Assembly: GCA_012728075.1 (NCBI GenBank)
Contig: JAAYFV010000041.1
Span: forward strand, 1-32,047
DNA: 32,047 nucleotides
Direction of reading: 5' to 3'
DNA from: Tissierellia bacterium
GTDB taxonomy: Bacteria; Bacillota; Clostridia; Tissierellales; Tepidimicrobiaceae
Below the pieces are notes generated by a model. It made no database searches. It was not told where the DNA came from and was given only the letters and a program-made list of their open reading frames with translations. The translations under genes were made by a program, and so were the position numbers. This document shows, one piece after another, positions 29,586-31,911 of this stretch (within the stretch, counting starts at the first letter, position 1; each line of letters opens with the position of its first letter).

Positions 29586-30788
29586 ATGTTAATTATCAAA
29601 AATTGTAGACTAATGGATATGGTAAGTATTGATGAAAAAATTAAAGATATCCATATTAACAAGGAGGGAAAGATAGAGGCCATTGAGGATAAAATAGATA
29701 TTAAAGATTATTCCAATGTGGAGGTAATTAATGCCAAGGGAAGATTGGTAACCCCAGGTTTTATAGAGCCCCATTGTCATATGGGAGTTTATGAAACTGG
29801 TATAAGGGAAGGTATGGATGGAAATGAATCCACAAATCCTGTTACACCTCAGTTAAGGGCAATAGACGCAATTGATCCTATGGATGCAGCCTATGATGTA
29901 GCTATAAGGCATGGTGTTACAACAGTAGTAGCTGGACCAGGAAGTGCCAATATTATAGGAGGTACCTTTGCTGCAATGAAAACCTATGGAAATATATTGG
30001 ACAAGTCCCTTATAAAAGAAGAAGTGTGTATGAAAATGGCTTTAGGGGAAAATCCTAAGTTTAATTATGGTAAAAGAGGTAAGGCCCCATCTACTCGTAT
30101 GATGAGTGCTGCCATCATGAGGGAACAATTATTTAAAGCTAAGGAATATTATGAAAAATTTAAGGAATATGATAAGAGTAAAGACAAATCTAAAGGTTTT
30201 GATTATGATCTAGGCCTACATAATCTAATGAGAGTATTTGATGGAATGAGAGTGAAAATCCATGCTCACCAGGCAGATGATATTTTAACAGCCATAAGAA
30301 TAGCAGAGGAATTTGGTCTAAGATATACTATAGACCATTGTTCAGAAGGATATTTAATAGTAGATGAACTAAAGGAGAAAAATGTTCAGTGCATTATTGG
30401 GCCTACTGTAGGAGGAGCTGGAAAATTTGAATCTCGTAATAAAACCCTAGAAAGTGCAGCTATATTGGAAGAGGAAGGTATAGATTTTGCTATAATGACT
30501 GACCATCCAGTGGTTCCAATAGAAGGCCAGGCTATGCAGTTAGCTTTGTTTGTAAAACATGGACTATCACGAGATAAAGCCTTAAAAGGAGTTACTATAA
30601 ATGCAGCTAGATTGACGGATATTGATGATAGGGTTGGCAGCATAGAAGTAGGAAAAGATGGGGATATAGTAATTTGGAATGTGGATCCCCTCGATACTAT
30701 GAGTGAGGTAGGTATGACCATTATAGATGGGAAAGTAGTTTATGAAAACAAGGGGGATGAGGCTTGTGTTGATTATAAAAAGATGTAA
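29586..30788 (+). CDS. Metal-dependent amidohydrolase (canonical ligands present)
   Basis: GFIEPHCHMG (HxH), KIHAHQADDI, YTIDHCSEGY, AIMTDHPVVPIEG; RBS AAAGGAGG. Confidence 0.88.
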   Translation: MLIIKNCRLMDMVSIDEKIKDIHINKEGKIEAIEDKIDIKDYSNVEVINAKGRLVTPGFIEPHCHMGVYETGIREGMDGNESTNPVTPQLRAIDAIDPMDAAYDVAIRHGVTTVVAGPGSANIIGGTFAAMKTYGNILDKSLIKEEVCMKMALGENPKFNYGKRGKAPSTRMMSAAIMREQLFKAKEYYEKFKEYDKSKDKSKGFDYDLGLHNLMRVFDGMRVKIHAHQADDILTAIRIAEEFGLRYTIDHCSEGYLIVDELKEKNVQCIIGPTVGGAGKFESRNKTLESAAILEEEGIDFAIMTDHPVVPIEGQAMQLALFVKHGLSRDKALKGVTINAARLTDIDDRVGSIEVGKDGDIVIWNVDPLDTMSEVGMTIIDGKVVYENKGDEACVDYKKM

Positions 30789-31911
30789 TTTAATAGATAT
30801 GGTAGGTATATATGAGGAGACTAGGGATATAAGAGTAGAAGATGGAAAGATAGTTGAAATTGCTAAGAATATAGACCCAGAAAGATATAAGGATGCTAAA
30901 ATAATAGATGCAGAAAATAATTTTGTAACCCCTGGAATTGTAGAGCCCCATTCGGAAATGGGAGTACGAGAGCAGATATATAGACATGAAGGAAATGACT
31001 CTAACGAAGTAACAGATCCAATATTACCCCAATTAAGGGCAATAGATGCTATAAACCCTACAGATGAAGGGATTAAAGTAGCAAGGGAATCTGGAGTAAC
31101 AACAGTAGTAGCAGGTCCTGGAGATTCTAATTTAATTGGAGGCACTTTTGCTGCATTTAAAACCTATGGAAGTACTGTTGATAAAATGATAATAGAAGAT
31201 GAAATAGCATTTAAAATATCCTTAGGGAATACTCCTAAAAAAGCCTATGGTAGTAGAGACATGATGCCTAAAACAAGGATGGCATCTGCTGCTATGATTA
31301 GAGAGGCCTTCATAAAGGCTAAAGAGTACCATAGACAGTATCATTCAGAAAATCCTCCTAAATTTGATATGAAGATGCATTCCTTAATGAGAATATATGA
31401 TGGAATGCTAGTGAAGTTTACAGCCCATCAAGCCTATGATATAGTTACAGCTATAAGATTAGGTGAGGAGTTTAATTTAAATTACACAGTAGATAAATGT
31501 AGCGAGGCGTATTTAATAGCAGAAGAATTAAAGGAGTTTCATCCAAAGCTTGTCATAGGTCCTGCTTATGGGGGAAAAAGGGATCATGAAATAAGAAATA
31601 GGGACACAATAATAGGCTCAGCAATGGAAAAGAATGGTTTGGATTTCTGTATATCTACAGGGCATCCTACGGTAGATATAAGTATGACCATGGTTCAAAC
31701 TATAATGATGCATAAAAAGGGACTATCTAGAAAAACTGCCTTAGAGGCCATGACTATTAATGCAGCCAATATGGTAGGCTTAGGAGATAGAATTGGTAGC
31801 ATAGAAGTAGGAAAAGATGCAGATATAGTGATTTGGGATGGGGAACCTTTGGATTACTATACATCACCTAATACGGTAATTATAGATGGAAATATCGTTT
31901 ATAATAGATAA
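30766..31911 (+). CDS. Amidohydrolase-fold paralog lacking most metal ligands (predicted pseudoenzyme)
   Basis: Colinear with the upstream gene, but GIVEPHSEMG, KFTAHQAYDI, YTVDKCSEAY, CISTGHPTVD. Likely GTG 30766 or TTG 30769 start after GGGGGATGAGG, overlapping the upstream gene. Confidence 0.87.
   Translation: MLIIKRCNLIDMVGIYEETRDIRVEDGKIVEIAKNIDPERYKDAKIIDAENNFVTPGIVEPHSEMGVREQIYRHEGNDSNEVTDPILPQLRAIDAINPTDEGIKVARESGVTTVVAGPGDSNLIGGTFAAFKTYGSTVDKMIIEDEIAFKISLGNTPKKAYGSRDMMPKTRMASAAMIREAFIKAKEYHRQYHSENPPKFDMKMHSLMRIYDGMLVKFTAHQAYDIVTAIRLGEEFNLNYTVDKCSEAYLIAEELKEFHPKLVIGPAYGGKRDHEIRNRDTIIGSAMEKNGLDFCISTGHPTVDISMTMVQTIMMHKKGLSRKTALEAMTINAANMVGLGDRIGSIEVGKDADIVIWDGEPLDYYTSPNTVIIDGNIVYNR

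What the first reader, a model, noticed from the sequence alone, without database searches (positions are those of the whole stretch)
29586..31911. Overlapping amidohydrolase pair in which the second copy has lost its metal site: a probable enzyme/pseudoenzyme couple
The two adjacent genes are clear full-length paralogs (shared TPG..EPH, DP..PQLRAIDAI.P, GVTTVVAGPG, IGGTFAA.KTYG, RM.SAA..RE, LMR..DGM.VK, DRIGSIEVGKD.DIVIW). In copy 1 the amidohydrolase ligands are present: HCH (beta1), HAHQ (beta5), DHCSEG (beta6), TDHP (beta8 Asp). In copy 2 these positions read HSE, TAHQ, DKCSEA and TGHP, so His-to-Glu, His-to-Thr, His-to-Lys and Asp-to-Gly. Four of about five ligands are gone, yet the reading frame is open to the end and the surrounding motifs are well kept. 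The start overlaps the end of copy 1, suggesting translational coupling. Selective loss of ligands with fold conservation points to a retained non-catalytic role, such as a regulatory or structural subunit of a heteromer, or a substrate sensor, rather than decay. Substrate is unknown; the divergent neighbours (OPT transporter, PepV) hint at peptide or amide metabolism.
Basis: partly seen in the sequence, partly recalled or inferred. Interest (0 to 1): 0.82.

Follow-up and report, generated by a model that had tools for sequence, protein, structure and literature searches.

The report
Paired dipeptidase-like enzyme and pseudoenzyme genes
Two overlapping genes encode a metal-dependent peptidase-like enzyme and a full-length, well-conserved sister protein that has lost the metal site, and the same kind of enzyme-plus-dead-twin pair appears to have evolved three separate times in this family, which suggests that the inactive twin is a working partner and not a decaying copy.

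Summary
Copy 1 (29586-30788) and copy 2 are full-length paralogs, 50% identical, related to T. maritima amidohydrolase 3OOQ. Copy 1 has all six dinuclear-site residues (HxH, Lys, His, His, Asp). Copy 2 keeps the first His and the Lys but has E, T, K and G at the other four. The conserved start of copy 2 is GTG 30766, not ATG 30742, so the overlap is 23 nt.

Copy 2 is not decaying. dN/dS is 0.05-0.12, like copy 1. Orthologues (123 clusters) all lack 3-6 of the six residues. In every sampled genome with an intact contig, copy 2 sits directly behind an intact partner. The 23-26 nt overlap persists to about 50% identity, and distances across 28 pairs correlate at 0.97.

Each lost much the same pocket residues. 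Both sit in dipeptide/oligopeptide transport operons with peptidases.

Best reading: a heteromeric prolidase-like metallopeptidase or deacylase with one catalytic and one non-catalytic subunit. The complex and the substrate are inferred, not shown.

The parts
29572..29579 (+). Shine-Dalgarno-like sequence (AAGGAGGT) of the enzyme gene
   Evidence: sequence
29586..30788 (+). copy 1: intact TM0814/3OOQ-like amidohydrolase, 400 aa. Ligand codons: H63 29772-29774, H65 29778-29780, K150 30033-30035, H226 30261-30263, H251 30336-30338, D306 30501-30503
30750..30756 (+). Shine-Dalgarno-like AAGGGGG of copy 2, inside the 3' end of copy 1; AAGGAGG or similar at the same place in the other pairs
30766..30788 (+). 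23-nt overlap of the two genes. The enzyme tail VDYKKM and the partner start (M)LIIKRCN are two readings of the same bases, conserved across the paired clade
30766..31911 (+). copy 2: metal-site-less paralog (381 aa from GTG 30766; the ORF is open from ATG 30742). H70 kept 30949-30951, E72 30955-30957, K158 kept 31213-31215, T227 31420-31422, K252 31495-31497, G307 31660-31662
31933..31976 (+). intrinsic-terminator-like hairpin with T tail directly after copy 2, the likely end of the two-gene operon
   Evidence: 4 terminator-like sites listed, all at this hairpin, against 1.4 expected

Best explanation
Copy 1 is a catalytic dinuclear metal amidohydrolase of the 3OOQ (TM0814) subfamily. Its nearest fold relatives with known activity are prolidases and Lys/Arg carboxypeptidases, so it probably hydrolyses dipeptides or N-acyl amino acids. 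Copy 2 is a non-catalytic paralogous subunit, translated from the same message by start-stop coupling, and assembles with copy 1 into a hetero-oligomer. It most likely replaces one protomer of an ancestral homo-oligomer. Because one protomer's active site became dispensable, its metal and substrate residues were lost, while the fold and interfaces that stabilise or complete the active subunit stayed under selection. Shown here: paralogy, site loss, purifying selection, conserved adjacency and overlap, coinheritance, and separate clades consistent with three origins. Inferred: the complex, its stoichiometry, activation of copy 1, translational coupling and the substrate class.
For: (1) Copy 2 orthologues form one well-supported clade beside the clade of their partners, with mirrored topology (SH-aLRT 98-100). 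(2) Across 28 pairs the enzyme and pseudoenzyme distance matrices correlate at 0.97 (Mantel 0 of 2000), and copy 2 changes only 1.16 times as fast. (3) dN/dS of copy 2 is 0.05-0.12 against 0.08-0.11 for copy 1 (window, L090, L091, L092). (4) A 23-26 nt overlap with an SD in the enzyme's 3' end occurs in all six other type-A pairs read as DNA with both genes on one contig (L090, L091, L092, L095, L096, L097). The VDY[KQ] enzyme tail that encodes it is in most paired-clade enzymes. (5) All 8 genomes of the order with copy 2 also have the intact partner, adjacent in 7 and at contig ends in the eighth. 21 metagenomic copy-2 proteins share their exact longest-contig length with a partner-clade enzyme. 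(6) Independent repetition: type B (L102-L105) and type C (16 genomes, including this genome's contig 35) pair an intact gene with a degenerate one. AU tests reject grouping A with B (p=0.02) or B with C (p=0.006) degenerate copies as one clade. (7) Tandem pairs with both copies intact (L099, L100, L101, L082, L049) look like the intermediate step. (8) In the amidohydrolase BwBSH1, alanine at any of the six equivalent residues abolishes activity (PMC13081902).
Against: No complex could be modelled and the interface is unknown. The quaternary state of 3OOQ was not available. A few partner-clade enzymes (P0187 Anaeropeptidivorans, P0188) lack the overlap tail, and no copy 2 of theirs was in the listed hits, so the dependence may not be universal. 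In type C the pseudo copy evolves 1.75 times as fast as its partner. Adjacency and coinheritance also fit a shared pathway without physical contact. Type-A neighbours vary between loci.
Confidence: 0.72

Rival explanations
1. Copy 2 acts alone as a ligand-binding (sensor or regulator) protein or binds a third protein, and is co-transcribed with the enzyme only because both belong to one pathway.
For: H308-P309 is invariant in aligned copy-2 orthologues although the enzyme position equivalent to H308 varies (H/A/N), and there are other pseudoenzyme-specific conserved residues (positions 372 Y, 325 K, 322 M and 101 E in copy 1 numbering). This could mean a conserved new pocket.
Against: There is no extra domain, no DNA-binding or membrane part. 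Adjacency to an intact paralog in all three pair types is not expected for a free-standing sensor, nor is the exact translational overlap.
Confidence: 0.15
2. Copy 2 is still an enzyme with a rebuilt active site (single metal or metal-free).
For: The first His and Lys150 are kept in many orthologues, and K or R often stands at the strand-6 His position, so some chemistry cannot be excluded.
Against: The replacements differ widely between lineages at every site: position 65 is Q/E/S/R/A, 226 is T/V/A/S/E/N, 251 is K/R/M/N/D/Q/V, and even Lys150 becomes R/H/Q/T. No new conserved set of ligands appears, and non-ligand pocket residues S120, E155, N156 and K280 are lost as well.
Confidence: 0.08
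3. Copy 2 is a decaying duplicate (pseudogene in progress).
For: Loss of catalytic residues alone would fit.
Against: dN/dS is 0.05-0.12, reading frames are open in every type-A locus read, the clade is broad and old (down to about 50% identity), and fold residues are kept.
Confidence: 0.01
4. The three pair types share one ancestral duplication, and the separate clades are a tree artefact of fast-evolving pseudoenzymes. (This concerns the number of origins and is compatible with the best explanation.)
For: Type C branches are long, and the pocket residues lost overlap strongly between types.
Against: Each pseudo clade lies beside or near its own partners. The A+B and B+C groupings are rejected (p=0.02 and 0.006) with ligand columns removed. 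Gene order is reversed in type C. A+C was not tested.
Confidence: 0.1

Closest known systems
Thermotoga maritima amidohydrolase 3OOQ (TM0814)
   Same: Only close solved relative: full-length alignment (E 5e-84 and 6e-67) and TM 0.91-0.96 for both copies
   Different: It has the complete site and was not seen here as part of a pair; nothing on it was found in the paper library searched
M16B metallopeptidase heterodimers (MPP alpha/beta, SPH2681/SPH2682, TTHA1264/TTHA1265, AlbF/AlbE)
   Same: Active subunit plus homologous subunit without the zinc motif, in bacteria from neighbouring genes; homodimeric relatives exist (PMC12731061)
   Different: Unrelated fold and family; a physical complex is proven there and not here
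Pseudomonas aeruginosa ATCase with inactive pseudo-dihydroorotase (pDHO)
   Same: Amidohydrolase-fold subunit that lost activity and is needed by its partner (PMC7053772)
   Different: The partner is an unrelated enzyme (ATCase), not an active amidohydrolase paralog
Trypanosome prozymes (AdoMetDC and deoxyhypusine synthase)
   Same: Catalytically dead paralog activates the live one by heteromer formation (abstracts of PMC5201418, PMC3663545)
   Different: Eukaryotic, different enzyme families
CRMP/DPYSL proteins
   Same: Amidohydrolase-fold proteins without the enzyme activity (own knowledge); they appear among copy 2's fold matches
   Different: Animal dihydropyrimidinase relatives, 14% identity, not paired in an operon with an active copy

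Membership tests
3OOQ/TM0814-like amidohydrolases | Full-length sequence and fold similarity | tested here: met
   both copies
3OOQ/TM0814-like amidohydrolases (copy 1) | Six-residue dinuclear site HxH, K, H, H, D | tested here: met
   copy 1 and 132 relative clusters
3OOQ/TM0814-like amidohydrolases (copy 2) | Six-residue dinuclear site HxH, K, H, H, D | tested here: not met
   4 of 6 lost, so copy 2 is a homologue but not a catalytic member
HutI imidazolonepropionase (TIGR01224) | NCBIfam curated cut-off 298 bits | tested here: not met
   67.9 and 56.6 bits
Isoaspartyl dipeptidase (TIGR01975) | NCBIfam curated cut-off 331 bits | tested here: not met
   36.5 bits for copy 1; a true member (373 bits) lies downstream in L095
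Xaa-Pro dipeptidase of the amidohydrolase type (NF051886) | NCBIfam curated cut-off 500 bits | tested here: not met
   61.9 bits; works-like remains possible from fold rank and neighbours
Pseudoenzyme partner (prozyme-type) | Catalytic motif lost in a conserved, selected paralog | tested here: met
Pseudoenzyme partner (prozyme-type) | Co-inheritance and operon linkage with the active paralog | tested here: met
Pseudoenzyme partner (prozyme-type) | Physical complex with, and activation of, the active paralog | not testable with these tools
   no multimer prediction, no biochemistry
Pseudogene | Relaxed selection or frame damage | tested here: not met
   dN/dS 0.05-0.12, open frames

The most novel reading that the evidence does not exclude
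A single amidohydrolase subfamily has repeatedly (at least three times) turned tandem duplicates into obligate catalytic/non-catalytic heteromers for peptide catabolism. The non-metal subunit's pocket, cleared of much the same residues each time, serves a common new role such as shaping the partner's active site or sensing the peptide product.
Probability: 0.4. Interest if true: 0.75.

Novelty: new variant of a known kind. Interest (0 to 1): 0.6.

Why it matters
Inactive partners of enzymes are known, but a natural series inside one bacterial family is unusual: single gene, intact tandem pair, then three apparently independent enzyme/pseudoenzyme pairs. It would allow direct tests of why paralogous oligomers lose one active site and what the dead subunit contributes. 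It also warns against annotation: proteins like copy 2 carry names such as 'amidohydrolase' in source records and match the Pfam models above cut-off, yet almost certainly lack the activity, and clusters with hundreds of member sequences exist in metagenomes.

Tried and rejected
Literature searches for TM0814, 3OOQ and an amidohydrolase pseudoenzyme pair found nothing on this system in the held library. A review of inactive metallopeptidase homologues does not mention amidohydrolases. Class- and phylum-wide scans found no further type-A pseudoenzyme among about 770 sampled genomes, and a class scan found no further type B. A urease-family search served no purpose. Type-A neighbours were compared for a shared pathway and none is shared. 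Direct coupling analysis across the pair was not attempted because 28 pairs are too few. In one search the enzyme clade was cut to 8 rows by re-rooting, so the invariance claims rest.

Full report
What is there. Window 29586-30788 encodes a 400-residue amidohydrolase (copy 1), and the overlapping ORF ending at 31911 a second (copy 2). They share 50% identity over 387 residues. Both pass the Pfam amidohydrolase cut-offs and neither passes any listed curated functional cut-off in NCBIfam. The only close solved relative of either is 3OOQ from Thermotoga maritima. Structure models are confident (pLDDT 91.7 and 93.4) and superpose on 3OOQ at TM 0.91-0.96. Next by fold, for copy 1, come Lys/Arg carboxypeptidase, prolidase and related enzymes.

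The metal site. In copy 1 the six residues of a dinuclear amidohydrolase centre are present: H63, H65, K150, H226, H251, D306. In copy 2 (ORF numbering from ATG 30742) they read H70, E72, K158, T227, K252, G307. Alignment to the solved Xaa-Pro dipeptidase 2QS8 places H226 and D306 on its VHAHG and TDAG motifs. In another amidohydrolase, BwBSH1, single alanine changes at each of the six equivalent residues abolish activity (PMC13081902). Loss of four of the six therefore almost certainly means no classical catalysis; this is inference from homology.

Gene overlap. Orthologues of copy 2 begin MLIIK, which in the window is GTG 30766 with AAGGGGG nine bases before it. The overlap is then 23 nt. 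The same 23 or 26 nt overlap with an SD-like sequence is found in L090, L091, L092, L095, L096 and L097, which share only about 50% protein identity at the extremes. Because of the overlap, the enzyme's tail VDY[KQ]xx and the partner's LIIK[NDR]C are two readings of the same bases. That tail is present in most paired-clade enzymes, including Clostridium tetani. A terminator-like hairpin follows copy 2.

Is copy 2 conserved? Protein searches gave 123 distinct clusters with a degenerate site and 132 with an intact site among those listed. Every degenerate one lacks 3 to 6 of the six residues, with very varied replacements. dN/dS between the window and its nearest loci is 0.05-0.12 for copy 2 and 0.09-0.11 for copy 1. 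Residues nearly invariant in 70 intact relatives but lost in copy-2 orthologues are H65, S120, A152, E155, N156, H226, H251, K280 and D306, while the other 41 such columns stay at least 50% identical.

Is the pair conserved? In the window's order (250 genomes) eight genomes carry type A, and all eight also carry the intact partner. It is adjacent in seven; in the eighth the two genes lie at contig ends. Twenty-one metagenomic copy-2 proteins have a partner-clade enzyme whose longest contig has the identical length, which implies but does not prove the same contig. For 28 pairs the distance matrices correlate at 0.97. The tree shows two mirrored sister clades.

Three origins. Type B (L102-L105): an intact gene followed by a degenerate one; at the six sites the degenerate copies read H,S,Q,S,S,N (L102) or H,H,N,C,Y,N (L103-L105). 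Type C: degenerate gene first, intact gene second, in 16 genomes of the order including this genome's contig 35. On trees with ligand columns removed, each degenerate clade lies with or beside its own partners, and three changes are needed. Holding A with B, or B with C, as one clade is rejected (p=0.02 and 0.006); A with C was not tested. Much the same pocket residues (S120, A152, E155, N156, H226, H251, K280) are lost in all three types. Tandem pairs with both sites intact also exist (L099, L100, L101, L082, L049), a plausible intermediate. Ligand-specific loss is significant for A and B (p=0.007, 0.017) but not for C, which has diverged more generally (p=0.19).

Pathway hints. Type B operons hold dipeptide ABC transport genes, an M20 peptidase, AroM, an aminopeptidase C-like (Peptidase_C1_2) gene, a PucR regulator and, in L104, an M55 D-aminopeptidase. 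Type C operons hold oligopeptide ABC transport genes; an M14 carboxypeptidase was confirmed in L106, with similar genes in other loci, and a glutamate-semialdehyde dehydrogenase in L107. Genes read by eye as Xaa-Pro aminopeptidases also occur (not searched). Type A: OPT transporter and PepV here, isoaspartyl dipeptidase directly downstream in L095, AbgT transporter in L096. Substrate class is therefore dipeptides or N-acyl amino acids, by inference.

Mechanism. The best-supported explanation is a hetero-oligomeric amidohydrolase in which copy 2 replaces a protomer and supplies stability or active-site surroundings to copy 1. M16B peptidases give a precise precedent for an active subunit paired with a homologous, zinc-motif-less neighbour (PMC12731061). 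The complex itself is not shown. Alternatives (independent sensor, altered enzyme, decay, single origin) are weighed in the rival list.

Limits. The genome is an unnamed assembly in 229 contigs; names on close hits suggest Tissierellia, by inference. Some partner-clade enzymes (P0187, P0188) lack the overlap tail and their partner was not found, so dependence may not be universal. The AU tests and trees are from quick searches. Pairing in metagenomes rests on contig-length coincidence.

Noticed in passing
G000 contig 35, 4412-6696 (L107): A second, separately evolved enzyme/pseudoenzyme pair (type C, pseudo first) in the same genome, next to an oligopeptide ABC transporter and a glutamate-semialdehyde dehydrogenase.
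   Followed up: yes
window 16764-21710: Anaerobic ribonucleotide reductase gene nrdD is interrupted by a group II intron: Rfam group II hits at 18185-18386 and 20658-20742 and a reverse transcriptase ORF at 18844-20652.
   Followed up: partly
window 8755-10122: A MATE transporter gene is cut by one in-frame stop at 9556-9558; the frame is otherwise open to both sides.
   Followed up: partly
window 10849-11094: T-box leader upstream of a PLP-dependent (PALP) enzyme gene at 11061.
   Followed up: no
window 26651-27019: PqqD-like protein encoded between the OPT transporter and PepV genes; its role there is unclear.
   Followed up: no
L095 5989-7092: A third amidohydrolase, a true isoaspartyl dipeptidase by curated cut-off, overlaps the end of the pseudoenzyme gene by 4 nt.
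   Followed up: partly
L143 5937-7878: The enzyme of this type C pair appears as two ORFs (318 and 253 aa), both covering the C-terminal sites; a rearrangement or assembly fault.
   Followed up: no
P0229-P0251: A large subclade of pseudoenzymes with essentially all six ligands replaced (SQ.R....G pattern), with clusters of up to 512 member sequences in metagenomes; partners not yet located.
   Followed up: partly
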